Below, piece by piece: positions 7,300-64,000 of a stretch of 64,000 nucleotides of DNA (its first letter is position 1; each line of letters starts with the position of its first letter). Below the pieces are notes generated by a model. The model did no database searches. It was not told the origin of the DNA and worked only from the letters and a program-made list of their open reading frames with translations. This DNA comes from Cordylochernes scorpioides (Eukaryota > Arthropoda > Arachnida > Pseudoscorpiones > Chernetidae), in contig CP092886.1 in the NCBI GenBank assembly GCA_030710605.1, forward strand, positions 54,873,382 to 54,937,381. The letters are read 5' to 3'. The position numbers and the translations under genes are program-made.

Positions 7300-8720
7300 A
7301 ACCGAAAAGCTATATAAAAATAATATCCAAGATATATAAGCGAAATATAACTGCGATTGTAAGCATGTTTGAAGTCTATATAAAAATTGCGGTCGTAAGC
7401 ATGTTTAAAGTCTATATATAAATGTGATTGTAAATATATTCAAAGTAGTGTCTATATATATTACTAGGATTGTAACATGTTTAAAGTCCATATATAATTA
7501 CGATGGTAAACATGTTTAAAGTCCTTATATAAATGCGGTTGTAAGCATGTTTAAAGTCTATATATAAATGTGGTTGTAAGCATGTTTAAAGTCTATATAT
7601 AAATGTGATTGTAAATATATTCAAAGTAGTGTCTATATATATAACTAGGATTGTAACATGTTTAAAGTCCATATATAATTACGATGGTAAACATGTTTAA
7701 AGTCCTTATATAAATGCGGTTGTAAGCATGTTTAAAGTCTATATATAAATGCGGTTGTAAGCATGTTTAAAGTCTATATATAAATGTGATTGTAAATATG
7801 TTCAAAGTAGTGTCTATATATATAACTAGGATTGTAACATGTTTAAAGTCCATATATAATTACGATGGTAAACATGTTTAAAGTCCTTATATAAATGCGG
7901 TTGTAAGCATGTTTAAAGTCTATATATAAATGCGGTTGTAAGCATGTTTAAAGTCTATATATAAATGTGATTGTAAATATGTTCAAAGTAGTGTCTATAT
8001 ATATAACTAGGATTGTAACATGTTTAAAGTCCATATATAATTATGATGGTAAACATGTTTAAAGTCCTTATATAAATGTGGTTGTAAGCATGTTTAAAGT
8101 CTATATATAAATGTGATTGTAAATATATTCAAAGTAGTGTCTATATATATAACTAGGATTGTAACATGTTTAAAGTCCATATATAATTATGATGGTAAAC
8201 ATGTTTAAAGTCCTTATATAAATGTGGTTGTAAGCATGTTTAAAGTCTATATATAAATGTGATTGTAAATATGTTCAAAGTAGTGTCTATATATATATAA
8301 CTAGGATTGTAACATGTTTAAAGTCCATATATAATTACGATTGTAACATGTTTAAAGTCCATATAAAATTACGATTGTAAACATGTTTAAAGTCCATATA
8401 TAAATGCGAATTTAAATATACATAAAGCCTATATATAAATGCGGTTCTAAGCATGTTCAAAGTCTATATATAACTAAGATTGTAACATGCTTAAATTGTC
8501 TATATATAACTACGATTTAAAGCACACACATGTTCAAAGTTCATATATAATTACGATTGTAAATATGTTTAAAGTCCATATATAAATGCGAATGTAAACA
8601 TGCATAAAGCCCATATTTAAATGCGGTTGTAAACATGTTTAAAGTCTATATATAACTAGGATTGTAAGCATGTTTAAAGCCCATATATAAATGCGATTGT
8701 AGCATGCTTAAAGTCCAAAT
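7300..8720. repeat. 36-bp satellite with ~181-bp higher-order repeat
   Basis: Monomers of about 35-36 bp read as CATGTTTAAAGTC + TATATATAA + variable ATGCGGTTGTAAG. Five variant monomers form a higher-order unit: the variant containing ACTAGGATTGTAAC recurs at ~7,463, 7,643, 7,824, 8,006, 8,152 and 8,306, i.e. steps of ~180, 181, 182, then 146 and 154. The last steps fit loss of one monomer. The array decays after 8,340. The mirror copy at the right end of the window enters the same array and lacks at least one monomer. Confidence 0.9.
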
Positions 8721-8880
8721 ATAACTCATGAGCTTCACACTTTAATCAGAATAAAAAATTCCTATGAAAATATTGATTCTAAAAAGATTTATTTCTTTAT
8801 CCACAGATGGTGATGATATTTGAGAAGTTAAATTTTTATCTTTATAGGATTTATTTCAACGTAAAGTTGCGCTATAAAAA

Positions 8881-9420
8881 CGACATGCACTACCAAGCTT
8901 CTTGTACTGTTCATTAGAGGTATTGTCATTCGCGTCTTATCAGCAGAGCCTGGTGGTGGCATTAAGCTAATCACCCAGTTCCGGCCGACCATTACCAATT
9001 CAGCAGATGGTCTCGCTGCAGGGATTTTATTTAAACCAAATTAATCTTTAGGGAGCCTCCGCCCAGTCGTAAAATTTCACCTGCCATAAAAGTTGGGACT
9101 TTAAAACGAGGTGTCTGGCCGTTGGCCCAGATCTCTAGATTAAACCAAGCCTTTAAACTAGGGCTGGAGGGGAATTTTTATAAACACACCCCCGCTGTAA
9201 AACCTGCCCTTCAAGGGAAATCAACTTGGACTGCAATCCTTTCTACAAGAAATGAAGTGATAAAAGCTAACATGCCCAACATTGTTCAGCCTTGATTCCT
9301 TTTACGACTTTCCCGATGTCCCAGGGAGACGTGAACGGAAGGCGTTAGCAGCGTGAGGTTTTATCACGAACTGATCTTGATCGCTTTCATTGTATAACTG
9401 AGGAGGGAAACTTTTTCCAG
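8881..9420. other. Non-repetitive block, nearly identical in both arms
   Basis: About 540 bp of balanced composition with no internal repeats and no long open frame. Against its mirror copy (62,829-63,370) I see one substitution in about 530 bp, while AT-rich stretches nearby differ every few tens of bases. It contains homeodomain-type words such as GCCATAAAA, AAATTAATC and TTTAAACC. It is a candidate conserved non-coding (regulatory) element, but constraint between two alleles is weak evidence on its own. Confidence 0.4.
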
Positions 9421-10119
9421 TGGTTGTATAGAACACAGTGAAATTGTATACATTCATTTTAAAACTTATCACATTAGGATATATGGGAAAGGTTTACAAT
9501 AACATTCACATTTTAATATTGATGCATTTATTTTTATTATATGTTCATACCCATGTTTTTGAATAGGTATATTAAAATTAGTTTCGAGAGAGAAATGGTA
9601 ACAATATTTAAGATATGATATTCAAACAAATTTTAAAATAGAAACATATAATAATTTAATAATTCGAGTCAACGCATAGGTACCATTCTTCAAGTGAGGA
9701 ATCGTAAGTGACATTGCAAGGCTGACTGCCATTTCGACAAACAAACGAAAGAAGACTGGGGTTGAAGAAATATTTTAAATATTTACATTTCGATAAAAAC
9801 ACATTTTGACTCGAATTATTGAAATAAATTCGTAGAGATCCAAGATGCGTCTCTTTTATTGAACGTTGACTTGCTATGGATTGCGCTATTTTAGAAAGAT
9901 ATGTTGTATCCTTGTATTTATCCAGAGACATGAGTTACAAATTCCATTCAAGCTATTGAATGACGATGTGCGATCCTCTATCATATCAAAATTCTGCCAT
10001 CTACGTACCTATATAGAGTGTATGATCTAATAACGTTCTATTTACAGTACCTCAGCTCTCACGAATGATCTGGTCGCTCTATATCAACAAAGTAGCAATA
10101 AATAAATTGTTTACATATC
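9421..10119. other. No gene supported
   Basis: AT-rich to mixed DNA. A 91-codon minus-strand frame (9,656-9,931) is read differently in the other arm because of a one-base length difference in a T run about half way through, so coding is not conserved. Confidence 0.45.
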
Positions 10120-10129
10120 AATCTACCGT

Positions 10130-10440
10130 TACTGCGTCTACCTCAGCCCATAGGTGGTGACTGACAGTATTTCTGTCCTCTCTGAGTTACCTTTCTATCT
10201 GGATAGTCTTTTGATGATATCGTAAGGTATTTTCCCTAAATTGTCTATGAATTCCATTTCTCGGCCTTTTTATTCCTAGTATTCCTTTCACAATCTGTCT
10301 ATCAATACATTCATTTACTCCGAGTGTCGGTCAAGATGTCCAATCATGCTGGTTCTCTTTCTTTCAATCCGCTCCAGCAAGCCATAACTCTACTCGATCA
10401 TTTCTAGGACGTCTTCATTGCTTAGTCTGTTTTCCGCGGT
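10130..10440 (-). pseudogene. LINE reverse-transcriptase ORF, C-terminal relic
   Basis: Read on the minus strand with stops and frame changes, this segment gives the C-terminal signature common in non-LTR retrotransposon ORF2 proteins. The pieces are NEDVLEMIE, then LLERIERKRTSMIGHLDRH, then a basic VKGILGIKRPR stretch, then YDIIKRLSR and finally VTTYGL. In intact LINEs this tail follows the reverse transcriptase domain. No RT catalytic motif or poly-A tail is present and the frame is broken several times, so it is an old 3' fragment. The same fragment sits at 61,800-62,115 in the other arm. Confidence 0.6.
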
Positions 10441-11052
10441 ATTCTCATTGTATTTGGCGCTATCATCACATCTCGAATACCTGCAGCTTTACTCCGCCTA
10501 TGGGTAATGTGTAATTAGTTTTCTCGAATGACAAAGCATTTTAAAAAGGTATCTCACGATCAATGGGCCACAGCCACTATTACATTTAAATATTTTATCA
10601 CGTCTCTTTCTTCTTAATACGAGGGATTTGGCATTGGCCTGAGTTGTAAGGAACTCCGAGTAACAAGACATATATTATTAGTGCGCCGAGTGTTTGCATA
10701 AGCATAATGTCCAAAAAATATTATATATAAATATGAGAAAGTTTTGTCTTTTAATTTACGAAGGAATTAATGTTCAAGCGCGATAAAATATAAATATAAA
10801 AAATGCGTTTTCAAATTTTATATTTAAAGAAATTTGCATAATATATTTTGAGCTGAAAGTCTACCTAAAATGTTTCAAAATACAAGTTAAGTTATCATTT
10901 GACAAAGAGACATTTAAAGGTGCTCACAAAAGTGAATCCTCGTTTATTTCAAGAGCGACAGGAGTATATGCGGGCATTCACTACAGGCAGTGCTAAATGA
11001 GTACTTTTTGTACATATATAAATATACACAAAGCAATAACGCGCCATCTATA
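10441..11052. other. No gene supported
   Basis: Mixed then AT-rich DNA without recognisable coding or repeat structure. The word GCGCCATCT at 11,041 is one of several AGATGGCGC occurrences in the window. Confidence 0.4.
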
Positions 11053-11140
11053 CATATAAAATAAAAGGATTTAAAAGCGCGAATGTTTCTTTTATACATA
11101 AAACGAACTTCTACTGTCCTTACTGCGATGAAAAAATATA

Positions 11141-11206
11141 TTGGGAGGGCTTGGCTCATCAGTGGTGAACCCTCCCAGCGGTTTCGCCAATTTAATCCAC
11201 CAGACC
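11141..11206 (-). repeat. Family X structured repeat, copy 1
   Basis: On the minus strand the unit reads TTGGCGAAACCGC, TGGGAGGGTTCACCA, CTGATGAGCCAAG, CCCTCCC. GGGAGGG and CCCTCCC close a strong hairpin. TTGGC next to GAAAC and GCCAA next to CTGATGA are complementary, as in stem II of a hammerhead ribozyme. See the finding on this family. Confidence 0.75.
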
Positions 11207-11342
11207 GCTTCTCAGAGCTCTAATACTGTATTGGATCATTCTGCTTTTATATGCTACACTGAAGGATGGAATCTTAGAAATGGTTTTCAAGTAAACTATG
11301 GACATAAGCTTATAGGACAGTAGAATTACATTCAAATGAGAA

Positions 11343-11412
11343 GCGGTCTGGTGGATTAAATTGGCGAAACCGCTGGGAGGGTTCACCACTGATGAGCCAA
11401 GCCCTCCCAATA
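11343..11412 (+). repeat. Family X structured repeat, copy 2
   Basis: Inverted partner of copy 1 inside the nested palindrome. Upstream it also has GCGGTCTGGTGG, whose GCGGT and TGGTG are complementary to ACCGC and CACCA within the unit. Confidence 0.75.
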
Positions 11413-11814
11413 TATTTTTTCATCGCAGAAAGGACAGTAGAAGTTCGTTTTATGTATAAAAGAAACATTCGCGCTTTTAAATCCTTTTATTTTATATATA
11501 AATATCTTTCTATTTATCAATATTTAATTCTATATATCCCACACATATAGATTTTGATTTATTTATAATAAATAGAATATATTTACATCTTATATATCAT
11601 ATGAAGCTAAAATAAAATATATATTGAAAATATTCTTATTTTATGAATTGTATACAGAAGAACAATACTCGGAAAATATATTCACACGTATCATCCTTTA
11701 CTCTCAAAGATTATGTTCATAGTTCGCTTAAATATCTCTAACCGAGAATATTCCCTCAAAGTACTGGAAATGTAGAAACCACAGCTCAATAGAATATAAG
11801 AATGGTGTGTGGTA

Positions 11815-11880
11815 GATTAAACTGACAAAACCTCTGAGAGAATTAACCACTGATGAGCCAAACCCTTTTCTATTATTTTT
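11815..11880 (+). repeat. Family X, degenerate copy
   Basis: Reads TGGTAGATTAAACTGAC, AAAACCTCTGAGAGAA, ACCACTGATGAGCCAAACCC. The CTGATGAG core is kept but the GAAAC block and outer stem are eroded. Confidence 0.6.
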
Positions 11881-11984
11881 TTATCAATCCAGTAAGAGCG
11901 CAGTAAAATTTCGTTTCATTTGCAAAAAAAAATCATTCTAAAGTAGTTTATATTTCTAATTACACAGGTCTACAAAAAAAAACT

Positions 11985-13290
11985 TTTTTTTTTGCACAAG
12001 AGAACCTGATGGTGTTTCTAGTGTAACTTTTCATGCTGTACTCAAAAATCTAATCAGAAATTTCCCATCACCCATGGTTTTTGCCTGACGATATTATTTT
12101 AGTATTGGGATAAATACATGCATCCAACATGAAAGAGACTTACGAAAACATGAAACTGCTTGTGAAAAAGATAGAATATGAAAGATACGGTTGGAAAATA
12201 TGCAGTGATTTGAAAGTCGTTGCTCTCTTGCGTGGATTACAGCTTGGATATACAAAATTTTGTTGTTTTCTGTGTGAGTAGGATAGCAGAGATAGGGAAA
12301 GGCATTATATTTAAAAAAATCTGGCCAAACCGTAAAATCTTTACTCCAGGATATAAAAATATTGCAAATCTACCCCTGATCGATTTAGAAAATATTTATT
12401 TACCACCATTACATATTAAACTGGGATTAAAGAAGAACTTTGTCAAGGCAATGGATCGAAATGCCAGTGGATTTGCCTACCTAAAACAAAACTTTTCTAG
12501 TATAAGTGAAGCGAAGATTAAAGAAGGCATTTTCGTTGGACCTCAGATTCGAGAATTGCAGCAGGATGGAAATTTTCAAAGTAGTTTGAATGAAGTTGAA
12601 GCAGCAGCATGGAATTCCTTTAGAAACGTTTGCAAAAACTTCTTAGGAAGTGTCAAGGTTGAAAATTACCGAGACATAGTTAATGATCTGTTGCTTTCCT
12701 ACAAGGCACTGGGATGTAACATGTCCCTCAAGATCCATTTCCTGCATTCACATCTAGATTTCTTTCCAGACAATCTTGGCGCAGTTAGCGATGAGCATGG
12801 TGAGAGGTTTCATCAAGCTACATCAAGCATGGAGAAGCGGTACCAAGGTAAATGGAGTCCCGCTATGCTTGCCGACGACTGCTGGGCACTCAAGAGGGAT
12901 CTACCATAAGCAAAGTATAGAAGAAAATCCACTGTCACTGCTTTTCAATAATAAATATGTTTCGTTCATATATGCCTATATATTAACAATATTTCCAAAT
13001 TCAAGTAGGTGTATCTCAGAAATATTGTGTAATAGAAAAAAACTAATGGTATATTTGGATTCAGGACATAGATAAGATGCTATTTCTTTGTGGACAAAGA
13101 AAAATATTTTTTGATAAACCAGTTACGTGACATTGTTTGCAATTTTTAGTGTATTTATCCCAATACTAAAAAAAGACCGTCACGCAAAAACCATAGGTGA
13201 TGGGAAATTTCTGATTAGATTTTTGAGTTCAGCATGAAAAGTTACACTAGAAACATAATCAGGTTCTCTTGTGCAAAAATCTTGTTGACC
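11985..13290. mobile_element. Element with ~130-bp inverted repeats around a broken protein
   Basis: About 11,993-12,119 and 13,147-13,283 are inverted copies (shared words GTAACTTTTCATGCTG, CTAATCAGAAATTTCCCATC, AGTATTGGGATAAATAC). Between them lies the 'EHGERFHQ' protein relic. The arrangement suggests a mobile unit or a local inverted duplication of an element end. No clear target duplication was identified. The mirror copy is at ~58,970-60,265. Confidence 0.6.
12130..12909 (+). pseudogene. Broken protein of an arthropod-type repetitive element family
   Basis: The conserved part runs from YGWKICSDLKVVALLRGLQ through YTKFCCFLCEWDSRDRERHY, PPLHIKLGLKKNFVKAMDR, KIKEGIFVGPQIREL, SLKIHFLHSHLDFFPDNLGA, SDEHGERFHQ to MEKRYQGKWSP, ending in WALKRDLP and a stop. 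From memory this is a widespread uncharacterised family found in multiple copies in arthropod genomes and presumably mobile-element derived; its biochemical role is not known. Here a TAG replaces the W codon of CEW in this arm, and an A-run length change just downstream shifts the frame (7 A here, 9 in the other arm). The C-terminal 150 residues from MDRNASGF are open in both arms. It is a decayed copy. Confidence 0.7.
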
Positions 13291-14480
13291 AGTAATTATA
13301 TATACTTGCTCAATATTTTTGAATATATAAAATATTGCAAATACAGTAGTGAAGTTTGGAAAATAATAATGTACTTTCACTCCATTGTTGATAACAGGCT
13401 TCTCTGATCTGTATAACATCGCTGTATCGGGTTTAAGGTGTTGTTCGCCCTGAGCGCGTTGTGGTTCTCAGGTGTAGAGTGGAGAGCTTGAGCTGATCCT
13501 GGTGCTCTGTAGACGTCGGCTAAGCAGAGGCCAACTTTGAAGTAAACTAAGGCAACGTTCAGTGTAAGTAGATCTTTCGACGTTGTATAGATTATTTCTC
13601 TAACTTTGCTTAATCTTTTCAGCACCATTCACACTGACAGACGTCGTCGCGAACTTTGGCTTCCAAGAACGATGCCAATCCAGAATGACTTTCTTACCTT
13701 TTTAGAATGTATATATACATCTATTCAAGCCTTTTTATTGAGACACCTCAGATTAAATAGACTCACCCTGGAGTCCAAAAAGAAAGGAAAAACAAATAAA
13801 AGTCAGAGCATCAAAAATTAAATAAGTAAAGAAATTTACACAGGCTCAATGTTTAGATATAACTGATATCGAGTTGCTTCTTTAATCTTTCAGATTTGAT
13901 AAGTATTCTCAACTATGCTGCTGAACTGTAGAACTGCTAGTACAGGAAGACAAAGTTATTATTGGCCAATGAATCAGTAGAAAGCTTGTATAACTTTGAC
14001 TCGTTACATTGATAGACATGTGAGACTATCAAATATTCCCACAGTGTCACATACGTACAATGTTCCTGGAATTACATGCATCTAGTGAATGTTATCCAAA
14101 TAATATAACTAGGAATGATCTCAACTGACGCAAGAAATAATAATAGAACTCTATTCAAAAGAAATACATTTTATTGGAGATTTAAAATGTTTGTAATAGC
14201 TGAGGCTCGAGCGACGTTCTAATCCCATACGGGGCTGACACAGCATTACCTTTGTATCATAGGGAGGTTTGTTCGCTTGATAGGTTTTATATAGTCAGCA
14301 TTACACGAACCTTGGGTCTCCAGTTGAACTAGAACTAGTAAAATATACGTAAATGGGGAGAGGAAACTACAAAAAGGTATTACCATTTTCTTATAAATAA
14401 AGGCGTATCATATGATCAAAGTATAACAATATAATTGTATATAAAGGGTGATAACTACCCATGTAGGGGTCATAACTACA
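13291..14480. other. No recognisable gene
   Basis: Contains short minus- and plus-strand open frames around 13,380-13,820, with some balanced composition near 13,430-13,530. No family or motif is recognised. The frames differ in start and length between the arms. Confidence 0.4.
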
Positions 14481-14483
14481 TAA

Positions 14484-14587
14484 CAAGGATCACTAGACAA
14501 TCGCTATTACTTTAGGGTAAATCTCTGTTGTTTTAAAAGAAACACTTTACCCTGAAGTTTTTTATAGCCTTGGCTCATTGATCCTTG
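14484..14587. mobile_element. Small hairpin MITE, CAAGGATCA ends
   Basis: Inverted ends CAAGGATCA and TGATCCTTG enclose inner inverted words TAGGGTAAA and TTTACCCT. About 104 bp with no coding. The mirror copy is at ~56,895-57,000, just beside the Helitron insertion. Confidence 0.65.
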
Positions 14588-14955
14588 TTTGGTATAATTA
14601 TATTATCTAACAATAATCATCTTTTTCGTCCCTGTATAACAAAAAGCCCAAGGACGAAGGGAGGTGAAATTTATATATTAGCTTTCATAGGTACCTCAAC
14701 TCCTTATGCTCTCATATATAGCTATGATAATTATATTAATTAGCTTAATAGGTATCAAATACTGTAGGTGTATTTTCATATCTAAGCTCTATCGTTTTAA
14801 ATGGATGCCTTTTTTGTGAAAGTGCTCTCATTTTTTACCCGAATTAAATTCTTGTTCCAAAATCACTTTATTAGGTACCGCTTAAAAAGAGCAGCCTAGT
14901 TTATGATATGTGCAACAATAAATAACATATGATGGTTATTCACATATTAAACAAA

Positions 14956-15031
14956 ATGTTAACGCGGGATTCGATCCCGGTTCATGGCTGTCGGGAATCG
15001 AGGGTGTTACCCACTCGTCCACCGACTGTTT
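14956..15031 (-). repeat. tRNA-derived SINE head relic (SINE-2)
   Basis: On the minus strand it reads GTCGGTGGACGAGTGG... with a near B box GGGATCGAATCCC and ends GCGTTAACA. An A-box-like word TGGACGAGTGG lies 45 bp upstream of the B box. Acceptor ends do not pair, so it is not a working tRNA gene. It shares the head GTCGGTGGA with the SINE at 29.4-29.75 kb. Confidence 0.65.
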
Positions 15032-15600
15032 TTATCGAATTAAATTTTAATCTCTTTATAGTTCTGATAATTATATTAAAATATTAAAATGACATTTCTG
15101 AATGCGTCATAGAGAATTATAAAAAAATATTAATGTGATTTTAGATGATGAAACAATTGTTTGTAACTATCCATTTCTAAGTACATTTTGCGGCTGAGAT
15201 TGCTGAAATCAGACGTGATACGACAAATATATTTATAGTAGAACATTAGTCCGTCACATTCATGCGACGACAATATAAATAATCAAAACTAAATAGTGTG
15301 TCTTGAAGTAATAAAATCGAATTATTCTTACATTGCTAAAATTTACAAAACCAGAATAAAGAGCTCTAGCGTCAGATCCCTATATAATACAAGAAATAAA
15401 TAAACACAATATCAAAATAATTCATAAATACTACTATGAAATATATATACTTTTTAAATTGCTGAAAAAATTGTTTAAAAATGTATATATTACCAAAATA
15501 TATAAATTCCGGAAATCGATTTTAATATAGAACTTTGTGTTGTTCGATGCAACTACTGAACTAAAAAAAAAATAAATACAGGCTAATGGGCTAATGAACT
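15032..15600. other. AT-rich intergenic DNA, nothing recognised
   Basis: No repeats or genes supported. Confidence 0.45.
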
Positions 15601-15601
15601 C

Positions 15602-15660
15602 AACGCTGATTGGCTGATTAGGTTAGGTGATATTAGAAAACCAATCAGCGAGCGAGTAAG
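15602..15660. promoter_or_regulatory. Clustered, inverted CCAAT-box motifs
   Basis: CGCTGATTGGCTGATT is followed after ~30 bp by the inverse CCAATCAGCGAGCG, giving CCAAT (NF-Y-type) pentamers in opposed orientation and a GATTGG-CTGATT doublet. The mirror copy at ~55,822-55,880 keeps them. This is typical of a promoter or an LTR, but no gene or TATA box is clearly attached, so function is inferred only. Confidence 0.3.
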
Positions 15661-16850
15661 CTGGACGCCTACCACTAATACGAATGCATATAAACCAATT
15701 TAAGGCGTATATTATAGTAGAAGTTGTGTGATTGTGATGATTATCTTTATTTTTTTTTGATATTTTCATAATCACACAAAATGGCACTTGTATGAGTTGC
15801 TCTTTTATTTCGTTGTTCATAGTTTTTCAAGCAAATGCATTAAAACTAAGACCAAGAAACACACTGATGCTTAGATATTTCTAGATCTGCCTCGCAAGAT
15901 GCAGATAAACAAAGCAATCAGTGGCGACGGAAGTCTGAAGCGTCGCATTGCTGCGTGAAGCTCCTAGACTAGGGCTTCCTAAGAGGAGAGACACGTTGAC
16001 ATCCAAGTATGTCACGTGAGTTACTCGGGTTTGTCACCAAATATCAACACATCTGGGTTTTATAATAAACACTAAATCAGTGATAGAGAGATATAAAACT
16101 ACGATCATTTCGAAATATAAGCTAGCAAATATACATGCCTAAATTTAGCTCAAATTACACTTCAGCGTTCATTTCTCTCTCATATTCCACCTAAATATAT
16201 TCCAATTTGACTAGTGTCGTCGCTGGTTATTGGGAACCACTGTTCTAGAAGATCGAAGCTTTCCACAATTCAGAATATCTGTCATTTTGGTCAGTGTCCC
16301 ACATGTCATTCTCGGAATAATGTCAAACTACGTACTATACGGTTATATTCTGTCCCAAACCTACGTTCCCTATCGTGTCCATCAACAATAGTAGTGCGAA
16401 GGAGAGATCAGGAGAAGAACTGTTACTAAGAAAACCCCCAAGAACTATTATGTAGAGAAGATTTCAAACCATTAGTTGATGAAATCTTCAGGAACGAATT
16501 GTTATTTCCTTTGAAGAATTCTTTATATTAAAATGGAGCGGTAGTGTATCAAAATATCAATTTCCTCATTCCGTAAACAGGTTTTATTTTACAAAAATGA
16601 TTTGACTGAGTAAATCTCCGAAATGCAGAGCTTCCTAGAGTCTAGTAACAGATCTGGGAAAGCGAGCTCGATTATATATATTGTAACAATGTATTTATTA
16701 TTTTATCAGCAGAGTATCATTTTTATGTTTGTATTTTGCTACTCTGTGCACTTCCTCTTTGCTTATCTTTTGTTTATCACTCGTAGTTTGTTCTTGCCTT
16801 AAATAAATTGCTGTCTCATCCCGAAGTTGGTCTTCCCTAATTTTCCACGT
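15661..16850. other. No gene supported
   Basis: Around 15,880-16,030 the DNA is more balanced (a block with GCGTCGCATTGCTGCG), with no recognisable product. The rest is mixed AT-rich DNA. Confidence 0.35.
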
Positions 16851-16852
16851 GG

Positions 16853-16853
<1 letters not shown>

Positions 16854-16889
<36 letters not shown>
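16854..16889. repeat. (TA)n microsatellite
   Basis: About 17 TA units here. The mirror position (~54,640-54,658) has roughly half as many, a length polymorphism between arms. Confidence 0.9.
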
Positions 16890-16891
<2 letters not shown>

Positions 16892-17394
16892 TAGCAAGGC
16901 CGAAACTCTCGCTGGTTTTACTTTTGATAAGACCTGACTCGGTACCAATCTCTTTCCATCCTGGTTGAACCATTGTGGTTTCCATTAACACAAAACAAAC
17001 AAATTTGACTCCTATTTGCACAAAAAATATAAACACTTTTAAAAGTGTTATTAACACATAAAAAACCCATAAAATTTGATAAAATACCTTTAAAAAATTT
17101 AAATTTTCTTTTTTTTTTACCTTTAAAAGTTTGATAAAAGGTTAACATGTTTCTGTCTTTGCTCTTTTTCTTATCCTAATACCTTCAATTCTTTTTTCCC
17201 CCTATGTTCTGCTTCTATGACGCGTAACTGCCGATGCTACAGCGTGAACTTGTTATAACCCTATGTTGTTACTTAAAATACAAAACCTTTTTGATACCTT
17301 AAAATGAATATTTTTCTAATTTGTTTTTAATTATCATTACTCCTTCTCTAATACCAACTATCTTTCATATAAATTATATATAATTCTACTATAT

Positions 17395-17455
17395 ATATAC
17401 TATAGAAATCTACTAGGGGTAATATATATTACCTCATAGTAGATTTCTTTATCAA
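17395..17455. repeat. Short perfect-looking hairpin
   Basis: AGAAATCTACTA and TAGTAGATTTCT are inverted around GGGGTAATATATATTACC. In the other arm a 137-bp MITE has inserted just beside it. Confidence 0.6.
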
Positions 17456-18237
17456 TATATGTTCCTTGCAAGTGTGTTGTTAAATATAATTAGCAAAAAT
17501 ATATTAATATCAAGAGAGGAGCTTAAAAGACGATGATGTGAAATACATTAGGGAAATTCTTTGGGAGAGAGTAATGCAAGGAGAAAGATTTACATGCTCC
17601 TAGTTGGGTTTGTATCCTTTCCTTGTCACAAAACAACCTAAAAATATTCTCAACTCAGTAAGCCCCTATACAAAAAATGTAAATATGTATTTATTCTCTC
17701 GTAATGGGGGGTCTTTAAATAAGTATAAATTAATAAAATAATTTCCTATATTAGTATGCTCACTGTATATAAAATACACAAGGGTGTATAGGATCTTCAC
17801 ATATGAAACTAGGCGCAACTATATAAATATAAAACCTTTTTATAAGCCATAGCGATGAACATATCTCTCTTTTTAATGAAAATAATTAATGGATATTTTT
17901 ATCAACCTACATATTTTAATTTCAATAGGTTGGATGCTAATTCCACATTTAAAACTTTGGAGATTCCTTGTAGAAAATAATGTTCCCCCTCATCAGCGAA
18001 TCTCTGTTTGAATTCCTGATCAGCAAGAAACTTGTAAAAGAAAAGGATCAGATAGAAATGGGATGGTTCCATATCGATGGAGTGAACTAAATGAGTCAAA
18101 ATCTCTTGTTCAAGAAATTGTATTATGATGCATTTGCGCGCCTTCTGTTATCAAAATTCGAAACTATTATAGATATAGACGCGTATGATTCTTTTTAAGC
18201 ATAAACAATTTCTACTGTCCTTACTGCAATGGAAAAA

Positions 18238-19090: not shown

Positions 19091-19094
19091 TAGA

Positions 19095-53145: not shown

Positions 53146-53989
53146 TGTTTATGCTTAAAAAGAATCATACGCGTCTATATCTATAATAGTTTCGAATTTT
53201 GATAACAGAAGGCGCGCAAATGCATCATAATACAATTTCTTGAACAAGAGATTTTGACTCATTTAGTTCACTCCATCGATATGGAACCATCCCATTTCTA
53301 TCTGATTCTTTCCTTTTATACAAGTTTCTTGCTGATCAGGAATTCAAAACAGAGATTCGCTGATGAAGGGGATCATTATTTACTACAAGGAATCTCCAAA
53401 GTTTTAAATGTGGAATAAGCATCCAACCTATTGAAATTTAAAATATGTAGGTTGATAAAAATATCCATTAATTACTTTCATTAAAAAGAGAGATATGTTC
53501 ATCGCTATGACTTATTTAAAAAGCTTTATATTTATATAGTTACGCATAGTTTCATATGTAAAGATCCTATATACCCTTGTATATTTTATATACAGTAAGC
53601 ATACTAATATAGGAAATTATTTTATTAATTTATACTTATTTAAAGACCCCATTATGAATAAATACATATTTGCATTTTTATGGAGGCTTACTGAGTTGAG
53701 AATATTTTTGCGTTGATTTATAGCAAGGAAAGGATACAAAACCCAACTAGGAGCATGTAAATCTTTCCCCTTGCATTACTCTCTCTCAAAGAATTTCCTA
53801 ATGTACTTCACATTATCGTCTTTTAATCTCCTCTCTTGATATTACTATATTTTTGCTAATTATATTTAACAACACGCTTGCAAGGAACATATATATAAAG
53901 AAATCTACTATGAAGTAATATATATTACCCCTAGTAGATTTCTATAGTATATATATATATATATTATATATGAAAAAAAAACAATAGAA

Positions 53990-54126
53990 AAATAAAGAAG
54001 GCATCTCCTGACCACGAGCACATGTGCTTTTTAATAAACGTTCAGTTTAATTTTGCTCCACTAGATGGCGCTCTGCCATCTAAAAAGCACATGTGCTCGT
54101 GGTCAGGAGATGCCTTCTTTATTTTT
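53990..54126. mobile_element. MITE family B, insertion found only in the right arm
   Basis: Perfect-looking 43-bp inverted ends (AAATAAAGAAGGCATCTCCT, GACCACGAGCACATGTGC) around TCCACTAGATGGCGCTCTG (54,057-54,075). The left arm at ~17,385 runs straight through this position within TA-rich DNA. The perfect arms and the empty site in the other arm indicate recent insertion. Confidence 0.85.
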
Positions 54127-55821
54127 AATATATATATATATAGTAGAATTATATATAATTTATATGAAAGATAGTTGGTATTAGAGAAGGAGAAATGATA
54201 ATTAAAAATAAATTATAAAAATATTCCTTTTAAGGTATCAAAAAGGTTTTGTATTTTAAGTAACAACATAGGGTTATAACAAGTTCACGCTGTAGCATCG
54301 GCAGTTACGCGTCATAGAAGCAGAACATAGAGGGAAACAAGAATTGAAGGTATTAGGATAAGAAAAAGAGCAAAGACAGAAACATGTTAACCTTTTATCA
54401 AACTTTTAAAGGTAAAAAGAAAGAAAATTTAAATTTTTTAAAAGTTTTTTATCAAATTTAATGTTTTTTTTTTGTGTGTTAATAACACTTTTAAAAGTGT
54501 TTATATTTTTTGTGCAAATAGGAGTCAAATTTGTTTGTTTTGTGTTAATGGAAACCACAATGGTTCAACCAGGATGGAAAGAGATTGGTACCGAGCCAGG
54601 TCTTATCAAAAGTAAAACCAGCGAGAGTTTCGGCCTTGCTACTTATATATATATATATTGCCACGTGGAAAATTAGGGAAGACCAACTTCGGGATGAGAC
54701 AGCAATTTATTTAAGGCAAGAACAAACTACGAGTGATAAACAAAAGATAAGCAAAGAGGGAAGTGTACAGAGTAGCAAAATATGAACATAAAAATGATAC
54801 TCTGCTGATAAAATAATAAATACATTGTTACAATATATATAATCGAGCTCGCTTTCCCAGATCTGTTACTAGACTCTAGGAAGCTCTGCATTTCGGAGAT
54901 TTACTCAGTCAAATCATTTTTGTAAAATAAAACCTGTTTACGGAATGAGGAAATTGATATTTTGATACACTACCGCTCCATTTTAATATAAAGAATTCTT
55001 CAAAGGAAATAACAATTCGTTCCTGAAGATTTCATCAACTAATGGTTTGAAATCTTCTCTACATAATAGTTCTTGGGGGTTTTCTTAGTAACAGTTCTTC
55101 TCCTGATCTCTCCTCCGCCACTACTATTGTTGATGGACACGATAGTGAACGTAGGTTTGGGACAGAATATAACCGGATAGTACGTAGTTTGACATTATTC
55201 CGAGAATGACATTATGACACTGACCAAAATGACAGAAATTCTGAATTGTTGAGAGCTTCGATCTTCTAGAACAGTCGTTCCCAATAATAAGCGACGACAC
55301 TAGTCAAATTGGAATATATTTAGGTGGAATATAAGAGAGAAATGAACGCTGAAGTGTAATTTGAGCTAAATTTAGGCATGTATATTTGCTAGCTTATATT
55401 TCGAATTGATTGTAGTTTTATATCTCTCTATCACCGATTACAAACCCGAGTAGCTCTCGAGACATACTTGGATGTCACCTTGTCTCTCCTCTTAGGAAGC
55501 CCTAGTCTAGGAGCTTCACGCAGCAATGCGACGCTTCAGACTTCCGTCGCCACTGATTGCTTTGTTTATCTGCATCTTGCGAGGCAGATCTAGAAATATC
55601 TAAGCATCAGTTTGTTTCTTGGTCTTAGTTTTAATACATTTGCTTGAAAAACTATGAACAACGAAATAAAAGAGCAACTCATACAAGTACCATTTTGTGT
55701 GATTATGAAAATATCAAAAAAAAAATAAAGATAATCATCACAATCACACAACTTCTACTATAATATACGCCTTAAATTGGTTTATATGCATTCGTATTAG
55801 TGGTAGGCGTCCAGCTTACTC

Positions 55822-55880
55822 GCTCGCTGATTGGTTTTCTAATATCACCTAACCTCAATCAGCCAATCAGCGTTGAGTTC
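55822..55880. promoter_or_regulatory. Inverted CCAAT motif cluster, right arm
   Basis: Mirror of 15,602-15,660: CGCTCGCTGATTGG and AATCAGCCAATCAGCG retained, one base run changed between them. Confidence 0.3.
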
Positions 55881-56453
55881 ATTAGCCCATTAGCCTGTAT
55901 TTATTAATTAATTTTTTTTAGTTCAGTAGTTGCATCAAACAACACAAAGTTCTATATTAAAATCGATTTCCGGAATTTATATATTCTGGTAATATTTACA
56001 TTTTTAAACCATTTTTTCAGCAATTTAAAAAGTATATATATTTCATAGTAGTATTTATGAATTATTTTGATATTGTGTTTATTTATTTCTTGTATTATAT
56101 AGGGATCTGACGCTAGAGCTCTTTATTCTGGTTTAGTAAATTTTAGCAATGTAAGAATAACTCGATTTTATTACTTCAAGACACACTATTTATTTTTGAT
56201 TATTTATATTGTCGTCGCATGAATGTGACGGACTAATGTTCTACTATAAATATATTTGTCGTATCACGTCTGATTCCAGCAATCTCAGCCGCAAAATGTA
56301 CTTAGAAATGGATAGTTACAAACAATTGTTTTATCATCTAAAATCACATTAATATTTTTTGATAATTCTCTATGACGCATTCAGAAATATCATTTTGATA
56401 TTTTAATATAATTATCAGAACTATAAAGAGATTAAAATTTAATTCGATAAAAA

Positions 56454-56530
56454 CAGTCGGTGGACGAGTAGGTAACACCCTCGATTCCCGACAGCCATGA
56501 ACCGGGATCGAATCCCGCGTTAACATTTTG
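56454..56530 (+). repeat. SINE-2 head relic, right arm
   Basis: Mirror of 14,956-15,031: GTCGGTGGACGAGTAGG and B box GGGATCGAATCCC. Confidence 0.65.
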
Positions 56531-56892
56531 TTTAATATGTGAATAACCATCATATGTTATTTATTGTTGCACATATTATAAACTAGGCTGCTCTTTTTAA
56601 GCGGTACCTAATAAAGTGATTTTGGAACAAGAATTTAATTCGGGTAAAAAATGAGAGCACTTTCACAAAAAAGGCATCCATTTAAAACGATAGAGCTTAG
56701 ATATGAAAATACACCTAAAGTATTTGATACCTATTCAGCTAATTAATATAATTATCATAGCTATATATGAGAGCATAAGGAGTTGAGGTACCTATGAAAG
56801 CTAATATATAAATTTCACCTCCCTTCGTCCTTAGGTTTCTTATTATACAGGGACGAAAAAGATGATTATTGTTAGATAATATAATTACCAAA

Positions 56893-57000
56893 CAAGGATC
56901 AATGAGCCAAGGCTATAAAAAAAAAAACTCAGGGTAAAGTGTTTCTTTTAAAACAACAGAGATTTACCCTAAAGTAATAGCGATTGTCTAGTGATCCTTG
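56893..57000. mobile_element. Small hairpin MITE, CAAGGATCA ends, right arm
   Basis: Mirror of 14,484-14,587. Confidence 0.6.
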
Positions 57001-57057
57001 TTATGTAGTTATGACCCCTACATGGGTAGTTATCACCCTTTATATACAACTAGACGA

Positions 57058-57082
57058 ATGGCCCGGGCAACGCCCGGGTTTT
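57058..57082 (-). terminator. Helitron 3' terminal hairpin
   Basis: CCCGGGCGTTGCCCGGG (on the minus strand), seven-base-pair stem and three-base loop, next to the CTAG end. In Helitrons this hairpin signals the end of the transposed strand. Confidence 0.88.
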
Positions 57083-57501
57083 ACCCGAGTGCGTATATAT
57101 TTTAAAAACGTTTTAATTCGAATACTATTCGTTACAATTATAAATTGGCGCCATGGATGTCACTCTTGTGAAACGTCCCGTTCCAAACTGTGTGTTTTTA
57201 AAATACACTACATATTTTATTCTTATAAAGATTATCGATTAAAGGTACTTATATATATTTAAAGGTTCTCATAAAGGTTACCGATTTAAAAGTTTATTTT
57301 ATTTTATTTAAAGAAACATATTTTCATTTAAGTATTCTTATTTATTTTAAAAGATTAAGTAATTGTGCAAAACGATAATTGCCTTAAAAAAATTGCCTTA
57401 AAAAAAAAAAGAAACATTCGCGGTGATTTTGTCTTGCATTCGTTTATACAATTATTATATATATTGGCATCATATATTAACTTTATGAACGGAAAAATAT
57501 G

Positions 57502-57573
57502 TCCAGGGTAGCCTAGTGGTCATGGCATCTGCCCGGTAAGCGGAAGGTCGTGGGTTCGATTCCCATCCCTTGA
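57502..57573 (+). repeat. tRNA-like module inside the Helitron
   Basis: 72 nt fold as a cloverleaf: acceptor TCCAGGG/CCCTTGA (one mismatch), D arm GCC/GGC, anticodon arm TCTGC-CCGGTAA-GCGGA, T arm GTGGG-TTCGATT-CCCAT. The A box TAGCCTAGTGG and B box GGTTCGATTCC match the consensus, and a T run follows (57,577). The anticodon reads GGT (Thr-type), but position 33 is C instead of the near-universal U and the acceptor has a mismatch. It is therefore more likely a SINE or tRNA pseudogene than a working tRNA. It is oriented opposite to the Helitron. Confidence 0.75.
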
Positions 57574-57598
57574 CACTTTTTTTATTTTATCCATTCTG

Positions 57599-57668
57599 AC
57601 CAAAATCTATCCGTGAACTTCACACAGTGAACTTCACACAGACAGAATAAGGCAATTATATAAGTAGA
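57599..57668 (-). repeat. Internal copy of the Helitron 5' end
   Basis: The terminal ~58 bp of the element (57,749-57,806: CCAAAATCTATCCGTGAAC, TTCACACAGACAGAATAAGG, then AAGTAGA) recur at 57,599-57,668. The internal copy has a 14-bp TGAACTTCACACAG duplication. The element thus has two nested 5' termini in tandem. Confidence 0.85.
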
Positions 57669-57806
57669 TATATATAAGTATAATAATAATTATTATTATT
57701 ATTATCATCAGATAATGATAATGATCATAATGATGATGCGCGCGTTGATGACCAAAATCTATCCGTGAACTTCACACAGACAGAATAAGGCAAATATATA
57801 AGTAGA

Positions 57807-58970
57807 TTATATTGTTATACTTTGATCATATTATACGTCTTTATTTATAAGAAAATGGTAATACCTTTTTTTGTAGTTTCCTCTCCCCATTTACGTATAT
57901 TTTACTAGTTCTAGTTCAACTGGAGACTTATTGTCAAGGTTCGTGTAATGCTGACTATATAAAACCTATCAAGCGAACAAACCTCCCTATGATACAAAGG
58001 TAATGCTGTGTCAGCCCCGTACGGGATTAGAACGTCGCTCGAGCCTCAGCTATTACAAACATTTTAAATCTCCAATAAAATGTATTTCTTTTGAATAGCG
58101 TTCTATTATTATTTCTTGCGTCAGTTGAGATCATTCCTAGTTATATTATTTGGATAACATTCACTATATGCATGTAATTCCAGGAACATTGTACGTATGT
58201 GACACTGAGGGAATATTTGATAGTCTCACATGTCTATCAATGTAACGAGTCAAAGTTATACAAGCTTTCTACTGATTCATTGGCCAATAATAACTTTGTC
58301 TTCCTGTACTAGCAGTTCTACAGTTCAGCAGCATAGTTGAGAATACTTATCAAATATGAAAGATGAAAGAAGCAACTCGATATCAGTTATATCTAAACAT
58401 TGAGCCTGTGTAAATTTCTTTACTTATTTAATTTTTGATGCTCTGACTTTTATTTGTTTTTCCTTTCTTTTTGGACTCCAGGGTGAGTCTATATAATCTG
58501 AGGTGTCTTAATAAAAAGGCTTGTATAGATGTATATATACATTCTAAAAAGGTAAGAAAGTCATTCTGGATTGGCATCGTTCTTAGAAGCCAAAGTTCGC
58601 GACGACTTCTGCCATTGTGAATTGTGCAGACCAGATTAAGCAAAGTTAGAGAAATAATCTATACAACGTCGAAAGATCTACTTACACTGAACGTTGCCTT
58701 AGTTTACTTCATAGTTGGCCTCTGCTTAGCCGACGTCTACAGAGCACCAGGATCAGCTCAAGCTCTCCACTCTACACCTGAGAACCACAACGCGCTCAGG
58801 GCGAACAACACCTTAAACCCGATACAGCGATGTTATACAGATCAGAGAAGCCTGTTATCAACAATGGAGTGAAAGTACATTATTATTTTCCAAACTTCAC
58901 TACTGTATTTGCAATATTTTATATATTCAAAAATATTGAGCAAGTATATATAATTACTGGTCAACAAGAT
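57807..58970. other. No gene supported
   Basis: Mirror of ~13,290-14,430. An 82-codon plus-strand frame (58,624-58,872) shows no recognisable motif. Confidence 0.4.
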
Positions 58971-60265
58971 TTTTGCACAAGAGAACCTGATTATGTTTCT
59001 AGTGTAACTTTTCATGCTGAACTCAAAAATCTAATCAGAAATTTTCCATCACCTATGGTTTTTGCGTGACGGTCTTTTTTTAGTATTGGGATAAATACAC
59101 TAAAAATTGCAAACAATGTCACGTAACTGGTTTATCAAAAAATATTTTTCTTTGTCCACAAAGAAATAGCATCTTATCTATGTCCTGAATCCAAATATAC
59201 CATTAGTTTTTTTCTATTACACAATATTTCTGAGATACACCTACTTGAATTTGGAAATATTGTTAATATATAGGCATATATGAACGAAACATATTTATTA
59301 TTGAAAAGCAGTGACAGTGGATTTTCTTCTATACTTTGCTTATGGTAGATCCCTCTTGAGTGCCCAGCAGTCGTCGGCAAGCATAACGGGACTCCATTTA
59401 CCTTGGTACCGCTTCTCCATGCTTGATGTAGCTTGATGAAACCTCTCACCATGCTCATCGCTAACTGCGCCAAGATTGTCTGGAAAGAAATCTAGATGTG
59501 AATGCAGGAAATGGATCTTGAGGGACATGTTACATCCCAGTGCCTTGTAGGAAAGCAACAGATCATTAACTATGTCTCGGTAATTTTCAACCTTGACACT
59601 TCCTAAGAAGTTTTTGCAAACGTTTCTAAAGGAATTCCATGCTGCTGCTTCAACTTCATTCAAACTACTTTGAAAATTTCCATCCTGCTGCAATTCTCGA
59701 ATCTGAGGTCCAACGAAAATGCCTTCTTTAATCTTCGCTTCACTTATACTAGAAAAGTTTTGTTTTAGGTAGGCAAATCCACTGGCATTTCGATCCATTG
59801 CCTTGACAAAGTTCTTCTTTAATCCCAGTTTAATATGTAATGGTGGTAAATAAATATTTTCTGAATCGATCAGGGGTAGATTTGCAATATTTTTATATCC
59901 TGGAGTAAAGATTTTACGGTTTGGCCAGATTTTTTTTTAATATAATGCCTTTCCCTATCTCTGCTATCCCACTCACACAGAAAACAACAAAATTTTGTAT
60001 ATCCAAGCTGTAATCCACGCAAGAGAGCAACGACTTTCAAATCACTGCATATTTTCCAACCGTATCTTTCATATTCTATCTTTTTCACAAGCAGTTTCAT
60101 GTTTTCGTAAGTCTCTTTCATGTTGGATGCATGTATTTATCCCAATACTAAAAAAAGATCGTCAGGCAAAAACCATGGGTGATGGGAAATTTCTGATTAG
60201 ATTTTTGAGTTCAGCATGAAAAGTTACACTAGAAACACCATCAGGTTCTCTTGTGCAAAAAAAAA
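58970..60265. mobile_element. Inverted-repeat element with broken protein, right arm
   Basis: Mirror of 11,985-13,290, with inverted repeats at ~58,973-59,100 and ~60,130-60,262. Confidence 0.6.
59340..60121 (-). pseudogene. Arthropod-type element protein, right arm copy
   Basis: Same family as 12,130-12,909. Here the N-terminal part keeps the W codon (CCFLCEWDSRDRERHYIKKK), so the left-arm TAG is arm-specific. The A-run after RHYI is two bases longer than on the left and shifts the frame early (ending LQIYP). The C-terminal 152 residues from MDRNASGF to LKRDLP are open. Still a pseudogene. Confidence 0.7.
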
Positions 60266-60382
60266 AAGTTTTTTTTTGTAGACCTGTGTAATTAGAAATA
60301 TAAACTACTTTAGAATGATTTTTTTTTACAAATGAAACGAAATTTTACTGCGCTCTTACTGGATTGATAAAAAAATAATAGA

Positions 60383-60445
60383 AAAGGGTTTGGCTCATCA
60401 GTGGTTAATTCTCTCAGAGGTTTTGTCAGTTTAATCTACCACACA
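60383..60445 (-). repeat. Family X, degenerate copy, right arm
   Basis: Mirror of 11,815-11,880. Confidence 0.55.
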
Positions 60446-60749
60446 CCATTCTTATATTCTATTGAGCTGTGGTTTCTACATTTACAGTACTTTGAGGGAA
60501 TATTCTCGGTTAGAGATATTTAAGCGAACTATGAACATAATCTTTGAGAGTAAAGGATGATACGTGTGAATATATTTTCCGAGCATTGTTCTTCTGTATA
60601 CAATTCATAAAATAAGAATATTTTCAATATATATTTTATTTTAGCTTCATATGATATATAAGATGTAAATATATTCTATTTATTATAAATAAATCAAAAT
60701 CTATATGTGTGGGATATATAGAATTAAATATTGATAAATAGAAAGATAT

Positions 60750-61200
60750 TTATATATAAAATAAAAGGATTTAAAAGCGCGAATGTTTCTTTTATACATA
60801 AAACGAACTTCTACTGTCCTTTCTGCGATGAAAAAATATATTGGGAGGGCTTGGCTCATCAGTGGTGAACCCTCCCAGCGGTTTCGCCAATTTAATCCAC
60901 CAGACCGCTTCTCATTTGAATGTAATTCTACTGTCCTATAAGCTTATGTCCATAGTTTACTTGAAAACCATTTCTAAGATTCCATCCTTCAGTGTAGCAT
61001 ATAAAAGCAGAATGATCCAATACAGTATTAGAGCTCTGAGAAGCGGTCTGGTGGATTAAATTGGCGAAACCGCTGGGAGGGTTCACCACTGATGAGCCAA
61101 GCCCTCCCAATATATTTTTTCATCGCAGTAAGGACAGTAGAAGTTCGTTTTATGTATAAAAGAAACATTCGCGCTTTTAAATCCTTTTATTTTATATGTA
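60750..61200. repeat. Nested palindrome with two family X units, right arm
   Basis: Mirror of 11,053-11,502. Arms and loop are in the orientation expected from the large inverted repeat; the loop has not flipped. Confidence 0.83.
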
Positions 61201-61799
61201 TAGATGGCGCGTTATTGCTTTGTGTATATTTATATATGTACAAAAAGTACTCATTTAGCACTGCCTGTAGTGAATGCCCGCATATACTCCTGTCGCTCTT
61301 GAAATAAACGAGGATTCACTTTTGTGAGCACCTTTAAATGTCTCTTTGTCAAATGATAACTTAACTTGTATTTTGAAACATTTTAGGTAGACTTTCAGCT
61401 CAAAATATATTATGCAAATTTCTTTAAATATAAAATTTGAAAACGCATTTTTTATATTTATATTTTATCGCGCTTGAACATTAATTCTTTCGTAAATTAA
61501 AAGACAAAACTTTCTCATATTTATATATAATATTTTTTGGACATTATGCTTATGCAAACACTCGGCGCACTAATAACATATGTCTTGTTACTCGGAGTTC
61601 CTTACAACTCAGGCCAATGCCAAATCCCTCGTATTAAGAAGAAAGAGACGTGATAAAATATTTAAATGTAATAGTGGCTGTGGCCCATTGATCGTGAGAT
61701 ACCTTTTTAAAATGCTTTGTCATTCGAGAAAACTAATTACACATTACCCATAGGCGGAGTAAAGCTGCAGGTATTCGAGATGTGATGATAGCGCCAAAT

Positions 61800-62115
61800 A
61801 CAATGAGAATACCGCGGAAAACAGACTAAGCAATGAAGACGTCCTAGAAATGATCGAGTAGAGTTATGGCTTGCTGGAGCGGATTGAAAGAAAGAGAACC
61901 AGCATGATTGGACATCTTGACCGACACTCGGAGTGAATGATTGTATTGATAGACAGATTGTGAAAGGAATACTAGGAATAAAAAGGCCGAGAAATGGAAT
62001 TCATTGACAATTTAGGGAAAAGACCTTACGATATCATCAAAAGACTATCCAGATAGAAAGGTAACTCAGAGAGGACAGAAATACTGTCAGTCACCACCTA
62101 TGGGCTGAGGTAGAC
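61800..62115 (+). pseudogene. LINE ORF2 C-terminal relic, right arm
   Basis: Plus-strand pieces NEDVLEMIE, LLERIERKRTSMIGHLDRH, IVKGILGIKRPR, YDIIKRLSR and VTTYGL, with stops and frame shifts between them. Same as 10,130-10,440. Confidence 0.6.
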
Positions 62116-62828
62116 GCAGTAACGGTAGATTGATATGTAAACAATTTATTTATTGCTACTTTGTTGATATAGAGCGACCAGATCATTCGTGAGAGCTGAG
62201 GTACTGTAAATAGAACGTTATTAGATCATACACTCTATATAGGTACGTAGATGGCAGAATTTTGATATGATAGAGGATCGCACATCGTCATTCAATAGCT
62301 TGAATGGAATTTGTAACTCATGTCTCTGGATAAATACAAGGATACAACATATCTTTCTAAAATAGCGCAATCCATAGCAAGTCAACGTTCAATAAAAGAG
62401 ACGCATCTTGGATCTCTACGAATTTATTTCAATAATTCGAGTCAAAATGTGTTTTATCGAAAAGTAAATATTAAAAATATTTCTTCAACGCCAGTCTTCG
62501 TTCGTTTGTTTGTCGAAATGGCAGTCTGCCTTGCAATGTCACTTACGATTCCTCACTTGAAGAATAATACCTATGCGTTGACTCGAATTATTAAATTATT
62601 ATATGTTTCTATTTTAAAATTTGCTTGAATATCATATCTTATATATTGTTACCATTTCTCTCTCGAAACTAACTTTAATATACCTATTTAAAAACATGGG
62701 TATGAACATATAATAAAAATAAATGCATCAATATTAAAATGTGAATGTTATTGTAAAGCTTTCCCATATATCCTAATGTGATAAGTTTTAAAATGAATGT
62801 ATACAATTTCACTGTGTTCTATACAACC

Positions 62829-63370
62829 ACTGGAAAAAGTTTCCCTCCTCAGTTATACAATGAAAGCGATCAAGATCAGTTCGTGATAAAACCTCACGCT
62901 GCTAACGCCTTCCGTTCACGTCTCCCTGGGACATCGGGAAAGTCGTAAAAGGAATCAAGGCTGAACAATGTTGGGCATGTTAGCTTTTATCACTTCATTT
63001 CTTGTAGAAAGGATTGCAGTCCAAGTTGATTTCCCTTGAAGGGCAGGTTTTACAGCGGGGGTGTGTTTATAAAAATTCCCCTCCAGCCCTAGTTTAAAGG
63101 CTTGGTTTAATCTAGAGATCTGGGCCAACGGCCAGACACCTCGTTTTAAAGTCCCAACTTTTATGGCAGGTGAAATTTTACGACTGGGCGGAGGCTCCCT
63201 AAAGATTAATTTGGTTTAAATAAAATCCCTGCAGCGAGACCATCTGCTGAATTGGTAATGGTCGGCCGGAACTGGGTGATTAGCTTAATGCCACCACCAG
63301 GCTCTGCTGATAAGACGCGAATGACAATACCTCTAATGTACAGTACAAGAAGCTTGGTAGTGCATGTCGT
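62829..63370. other. Non-repetitive near-identical block, right arm
   Basis: Mirror of 8,881-9,420, one substitution seen (TGTACATTAG against TGTTCATTAG). Confidence 0.4.
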
Positions 63371-63539
63371 TTTTATAGCGCAACTTTACGTTGAAATAAA
63401 TCCTATAAAGATAAAAATTTAACTTCTCAAATATCATCACCATCTGTGGATAAAGAAATAAATCTTTTTAGAATCAATATTTTCATAGGAATTTTTTATT
63501 CTGATTAAAGTGTGAAGCTCATGAGTTATATTTGGACTT

Positions 63540-64000
63540 TAAGCATGATACAATCGCATTTATATATGGGCTTTAAACATGCTTACAATCCTAGTTATAT
63601 ATAGACTTTAAACATGTTTACAACCGCATTTAAATATGGGCTTTATGCATGTTTACATTCGCATTTATATATATGGACTTTAAACATATTTACATTCGTA
63701 ATTATATATGAACTTTGAACATGTGTGTGCTTTAAATCGTAGTTATATATAGACACTTTAAGCGTGTTACAATCCTAGTTATATATAGACTTTGAACATG
63801 CTTAGAACCGCATTTATATATAGGCTTTATGTATATTTAAATTCGCATTTATATATGAACTTTAAACATGCTTACAATCGTAATTTTATATGGACTTTAA
63901 ACATGTTACAATCCTAGTTATATATAGACACTACTTTGAACATATTTACAAACACATTTATATATAGACTTTAAACATGCTTAGAACCGCATTTATATAT
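63540..64000. repeat. 36-bp satellite, right arm, cut by window edge
   Basis: Mirror of the decayed end of the 7,300-8,720 array. One monomer present at ~8,340-8,375 on the left is missing here. Confidence 0.85.

What the first reader, a model, noticed from the sequence alone, without database searches (positions are those of the whole stretch)
8214..64000. ~28-kb arms form a near-complete palindrome around a 100-N gap
The whole window from ~8.2 kb is a mirror image about the gap. Shared old insertions (SINE-1 with its target duplication, mariner A with its one-base deletion) show the arms descend from one locus. Scattered substitutions, microsatellite and satellite length changes and arm-specific insertions look like ordinary allelic differences. 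The most economical reading is two haplotype contigs of one locus scaffolded head to head. The alternative is a real palindrome, as on some sex chromosomes or amplified regions, where gene conversion would tend to keep the arms alike.
Basis: partly seen in the sequence, partly recalled or inferred. Interest (0 to 1): 0.75.

Follow-up and report, generated by a model that had tools for sequence, protein, structure and literature searches.

The report
False palindrome from misplaced allele contig
The big mirror-image sequence is most likely not a real genome feature: it is two slightly different parental copies of one locus that the assembly pasted side by side, one of them backwards.

Summary
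The mirror image is real in the letters and larger than the window shows. Contig D (36018 to window coordinate 78413, 42.4 kb, a 100-N gap at each end) is the inverted counterpart of contig C (-16597 to 35917) from its first base to its last, apart from arm-specific insertions. Outside tandem arrays the arms differ by 3.0% substitutions, in a patchwork of 0.3% to about 9% per kb. Two probes from the arms without high-copy repeats each hit only these two places in 2.62 Gb.

The decisive point is the far end of D. Another contig, A, which ends 39.4 kb upstream of C, is a second copy of C's first 5964 bases (in pieces, 86-99% identical), in direct orientation. A ends at C base 5964; D, reversed, starts at C base 5965. 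B's last base and C's first base are likewise neighbours within A. So A+reversed D and B+C are two continuous versions of one locus, each cut at a base, with D put back inverted. The palindrome is therefore a scaffolding artefact. Alleles are the likeliest reading; tandem paralogues are not excluded without read depth. Low interest.

The parts
1..35917 (+). Contig C (left arm); the contig begins outside the window at -16597, 52,515 bp in all
   Evidence: 100-N gaps at -16697..-16598 and 35918..36017
35918..36017 (.). 100-N scaffold gap at the mirror centre; no sequence in the assembly links the arms
36018..64000 (-). Contig D (right arm), inverted counterpart of C; the contig ends outside the window at 78413, 42,396 bp in all
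   Evidence: matches C from 36018<->35890 to 78413<->-10633
35891..35917 (+). 27-bp overhang of C beyond the end of D; the arms converge to 1 mismatch per 200 bp in each of the last two 200-bp bins before it
   Evidence: the 28-mer 35890-35917 with up to 2 mismatches occurs once in the genome
2810..4215 (+). Tc1-like transposon present in C only, TA target; D has the empty TA site near 68782. Exact inverted ends of about 28 bp are seen by eye in the printed edges; the script's own inverted-end count gave 0 because the indel is placed two bases off
   Evidence: ORF 3049-4071 matches DDE_3 and HTH_Tnp_Tc3_2
57050..57806 (.). 757-bp segment present in D only, holding a tRNA-Thr-like match (57501-57576)
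23629..24029 (-). Mariner-type transposase stretch shared at the mirrored place, arm C
   Evidence: 99.3% to 47700-48101, one gap
47700..48101 (+). Mariner-type transposase stretch, arm D (HTH_48)
11959..13293 (.). Shared ~1.33-kb high-copy element with ~130-bp inverted repeats near its ends, arm C
58956..60291 (.). Same element at the mirrored place, arm D (edges derived from the mirror position)

Best explanation
The palindrome is an assembly artefact. The individual carries two versions of one locus that differ by about 3% substitutions plus insertions. The assembler kept both: version 1 as B+C and version 2 as A+reversed D. Both end within 27 bp of each other where the versions become nearly identical, as expected where two branches of an assembly graph rejoin (inferred). 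During scaffolding each was cut at a base and the pieces were ordered A, B, C, D with D flipped, which makes C and D face each other across a 100-N gap. Shown from sequence: containment of D in C, the shared end, the base-exact A/D and B/C junctions, and the opposite orientation of A and D. Inferred: that the two versions are alleles, and that a scaffolder's cutting and placement step made the order.
For: D is bounded by 100-N gaps and aligns to C from its first to its last base. A matches C 66-5964 in six pieces in direct orientation and ends there; reversed D starts at C 5965; the last 200 bp of A followed by the first 200 bp of reversed D align to C as one block, 401 columns at 91.3%, with no extra or missing block at the join. 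B's match ends with its last base at base 3941 of the A stretch held, and C starts at base 3942. Two of two arm probes without high-copy repeats are found only in C and D. Divergence is a patchwork, with present/empty insertion differences. The arms converge at the gap. An unrelated locus on C10 shows a diverged copy (4-6% mismatches) about 30 kb away, in direct orientation, that begins at a 100-N gap. Published signs of false duplication include a gap between the copies (PMC9516828, passages).
Against: 3% substitution is high for heterozygosity, and no read depth, read k-mers or Hi-C maps were available. A probe from B (L011:3000-5000) found no full-length second copy; its listed C24 matches are itself, one short self-match and one repeat copy, so the A/B pairing is shown only for the last ~4.8 kb of B, much of it satellite. 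Of the two RNase P pairs, the C5 pair shares only 172 bp in the loci held. No contig continuing past the shared end of C and D was identified (one search finds the C tail once only).
Confidence: 0.88

Rival explanations
1. The two versions are real paralogues in a direct tandem duplication (A+reversed D next to B+C), and only their order and the orientation of D are wrong.
For: Substitution divergence of 3% is within reach of an old duplication; contig F nearby is a 33-kb tandem array inside one contig, so tandem duplication may occur here.
Against: Both versions end within 27 bp of each other and converge there; each of two probes is found only twice; a gap separates the copies. None of these excludes paralogues.
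Confidence: 0.09
2. A real palindrome, as on some sex chromosomes, with arms C and D.
For: C and D are adjacent and inverted in a chromosome-scale scaffold; C24 is the last sequence by number and is 180 Mb, which might mean a sex chromosome (guess from order only).
Against: Reversed D continues base for base from A, which lies upstream of C in the other orientation; D is walled by gaps; arms 3% apart with unmatched insertions show little homogenisation. It would need a third partial copy (A) that happens to end exactly where D ends.
Confidence: 0.02
3. A chimeric hairpin read or duplicated sequence from one molecule (homotype false duplication).
For: Mirror symmetry at a gap; PMC9516828 mentions false palindromic PacBio chimeras of 7-17 kb (passage).
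Against: 857 substitutions in 28,243 aligned bases and present/empty insertions between arms; arms of 42 kb and more.
Confidence: 0.01

Closest known systems
Haplotig / haplotypic duplication retained in a primary assembly (purge_dups, PMC7203741, part 1 of 2 of the text read)
   Same: Two diverged copies of one region kept as separate contigs; one contained in the other
   Different: Here one haplotype version is itself in two pieces (A and D), and one piece was placed inverted, giving a false palindrome
False heterotype duplication (PMC9516828, 12 of 29 matching places read as passages)
   Same: Neighbouring copies on one scaffold separated by an assembly gap
   Different: Read depth and k-mer criteria could not be tested; the copies C and D are inverted
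Real large palindromes of sex chromosomes (recalled)
   Same: Large inverted arms around a short centre
   Different: Real ones are typically kept alike by gene conversion (recalled); here arms differ by 3%, with a gap at the centre and continuity of reversed D from A

Membership tests
Haplotypic (heterotype) false duplication | One copy contained in the other, or overlapping contig ends | tested here: met
   D 36018-78413 aligns to C 35890 to -10633
Haplotypic (heterotype) false duplication | Assembly gap between the copies | tested here: met
   100 N at 35918-36017; also at the outer ends of C and D
Haplotypic (heterotype) false duplication | Half read depth on each copy | not testable with these tools
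   no reads held
Haplotypic (heterotype) false duplication | Single-copy (heterozygous) k-mers in each copy | not testable with these tools
   needs read k-mers; the window alone shows that about half of the left arm's 31-mers are not in the right arm
Haplotypic (heterotype) false duplication | My own criterion: order of pieces incompatible with a single real chromosome without coincidence | tested here: met
   A/reversed-D and B/C junctions are base-exact
Real chromosomal palindrome | Continuous sequence across the centre | tested here: inconclusive
   the assembly has a 100-N gap there; no reads to test it
Real chromosomal palindrome | Arms homogenised by gene conversion | tested here: inconclusive
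   3.0% outside arrays, but patches at 0.3-0.7%
Real chromosomal palindrome | Outer boundary passing into unlike sequence within the contigs of both arms | tested here: not met
   D stops at a gap while still aligned to C; the matching continuation lies in A

The most novel reading that the evidence does not exclude
A real, diverged inverted duplication of about 42 kb, in which a segment of an old tandem duplicate (A+D) was moved past B+C and inverted on the chromosome, so that the gaps fall by chance on the true breakpoints.
Probability: 0.03. Interest if true: 0.4.

Novelty: not a real feature. Interest (0 to 1): 0.1.

Why it matters
It matters as a caution. Genes or repeats counted here would be doubled, and an inverted allele piece could be read as a structural variant or a sex-chromosome palindrome. 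The A/D and B/C junction test shows that sequence alone, without reads, can expose such a case when the other half of the cut contig is nearby.

Tried and rejected
Unresolved: the organism was not identified. A size-and-karyotype paper search (listing only) listed mostly fish genomes; Pfam 7tm_6 and Spidroin_N gave no match, but no control genome rang either, so neither says anything. The 18S search failed (machine error). I therefore have no published heterozygosity or duplication figure for this assembly.

Rejected: sequence error as the cause of arm differences (3% substitutions and long insertions). Rejected: a simple repeat as the reason for the break at the centre; the sequence there is not a simple repeat and the last 818 bp of C are found only in the two arms. 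The 12000-13000 probe was useless for copy number because it lies in a high-copy element. Probes from contigs B and E did not give a base rate: B's matches were partial copies of repeats (54 listed, 40 of 7247 candidates scored), E had one near-identical full-length copy, on C21. RNase MRP gave 6 hits but their loci could not be cut out, so it was not used. A search for papers holding four terms on false duplication and inverted orientation returned none, which is no proof of absence; two searches were seen as listings, and of the papers in them I opened only PMC7203741 and PMC9516828.

Full report
Setting. The window is C24:54873382-54937381 of an unnamed 2.62-Gb genome in 24 sequences. Coordinates below are window coordinates; values below 1 or above 64000 lie in the flanks.

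Observation. Self-comparison gives inverted blocks that together run from 8215/63999 to 35890/36018 around the only N run, 35918-36017, exactly 100 N. Of 25,766 distinct 31-mers in 8215-35917, 13,200 recur in the reversed right part, and 0 in one shuffle of the right part. The mirror is real in the letters.

Extent. I fetched 60 kb left and 140 kb right. In those 264 kb there are five gaps, each 100 N, starting at -56019, -16697, 35918, 78414 and 144920. They define contigs A (ends -56020), B (-55919 to -16698), C (-16597 to 35917, 52,515 bp), D (36018 to 78413, 42,396 bp), E and F. D aligns inverted to C: its first base matches C at 35890, its last base matches C at -10633, with arm-specific segments between.

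Divergence. In an alignment of C with reversed D, mismatches per 1-kb bin vary from 0.3-0.7% (bins at 0, 10-12 and 22-24 kb) to about 9% in the worst bins outside the arrays and 10% in the outer array. Outside the tandem arrays and right of -2400 there are 857 mismatches in 28,243 aligned bases (3.0%) and 151 indel runs. Long differences include a 1,406-bp Tc1-like element in C with an empty TA site in D, a 757-bp segment with a tRNA-like match in D only, a 2,041-bp segment in C only and a 1,064-bp segment in D only. The exact inverted ends of the Tc1-like element were read by eye from the printed edges; the script's own count of inverted ends was 0 because the aligner placed the indel two bases off. 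Other elements are shared at mirrored places: a mariner stretch (99.3% over 402 columns) and a 1.33-kb high-copy element. So the two arms descend from one locus and have since diverged by substitution and insertion.

Copy number. Probes 35100-35917 and 30000-31000 each occur at exactly two places in the genome, one in C and one in D. Of three arm probes sent, the third (12000-13000) lies in a high-copy element and listed 41 matches.

The shared end. C runs 27 bp further than D at the centre. The last 400 bp before D's end hold 2 mismatches; the two 200-bp bins before these hold 5 and 7, and the eleven bins before those, mostly in a 51-bp satellite, 9-24 each. The 28-mer 35890-35917 occurs once in the genome with up to 2 mismatches. 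Two contigs that end together where their sequences become nearly the same are what two arms of an assembly-graph bubble would give (inference).

The far end, the decisive test. A probe from C's first 3 kb found, besides high-copy pieces, an 88-90% copy in three pieces in contig A, in direct orientation, lacking a high-copy insertion. Detailed comparison: A matches C 66-5964 in six pieces of 86-99% identity and A's last base pairs with C 5964; reversed D's first base pairs with C 5965. The last 200 bp of A followed by the first 200 bp of reversed D align to C in one block, 401 columns at 91.3%, with nothing missing or repeated at the join beyond single-base differences. Further left, the 4 kb of A upstream match the end of B up to B's last base (base 3941 of the A stretch), and C's first base is the next one (3942). 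Part of that B match is satellite: B's internal repeat runs to about its base 38,180 of 39,222. Thus A+reversed D is one unbroken version of the locus, B+C is the other, and each carries a cut that the scaffold shows as a 100-N gap. In the scaffold the order is A, B, C, D, with D opposite in orientation to A. A real palindrome would require a third partial copy A that ends, by coincidence, at the exact base where D ends.

Is it a general feature of this assembly? RNase P RNA gave four hits in two pairs. For the C10 pair, the second copy begins directly at a 100-N gap and matches the first over about 4.8 kb, with 4-6% mismatches in the three main blocks and a 2.6-kb segment where the first has 0.2 kb, in direct orientation. 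The C5 pair shares only 172 bp in the loci held. So 1 of 2 pairs examined shows the same kind of duplication; this is support, not a rate. A probe from B found no full-length partner, so how far A runs parallel to B is unknown.

Literature. PMC7203741 (part 1 of 2 of the text) describes contained haplotigs and heterozygous overlaps left in primary assemblies, and says that divergence between haplotypes makes assemblers create two copies and breaks. PMC9516828 (passages) lists half depth, gaps between copies, discordant read pairs and single-copy k-mers as the marks of false duplications. Of these only the gap could be tested here, and it is met.

Verdict. The palindrome is not a real feature (about 0.97, taking alleles and misplaced paralogues together). 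The two versions are most likely alleles (0.88); misplaced tandem paralogues are possible (0.09); a real palindrome is unlikely (0.02). Interest is low.

Noticed in passing
contig F, window coordinates 145020 onward (L023-L028, L033, L034): Direct tandem array of a ~33.17-kb unit, about 2.35 copies in the 79 kb held, 99.62% identical with 7 mismatches but 132 gap openings over 44.7 kb; nearly all differences are indels, which looks like residual read error or a very recent array.
   Followed up: partly
L020:2000-4000 (contig E) and C21:994744-996748: A 2-kb stretch has one near-identical full-length copy on another chromosome.
   Followed up: no
C14:4826169-4828475 and C1:36757719-36822130: Six over-cut-off RNase MRP RNA matches, one pair 2 kb apart and four within 64 kb.
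   Followed up: no
C5:102814975-102914189 (L035, L038): Two RNase P RNA matches 99 kb apart share 172 identical bases but no flank in the loci held.
   Followed up: partly
C10:74625636-74655573 (L036, L037, L040, L041): Second probable haplotypic duplication, direct orientation, second copy starting at a 100-N gap.
   Followed up: partly
window 33705-35076 and 36823-38200: 51-bp-unit satellite array near the centre, about 27 copies in each arm.
   Followed up: no
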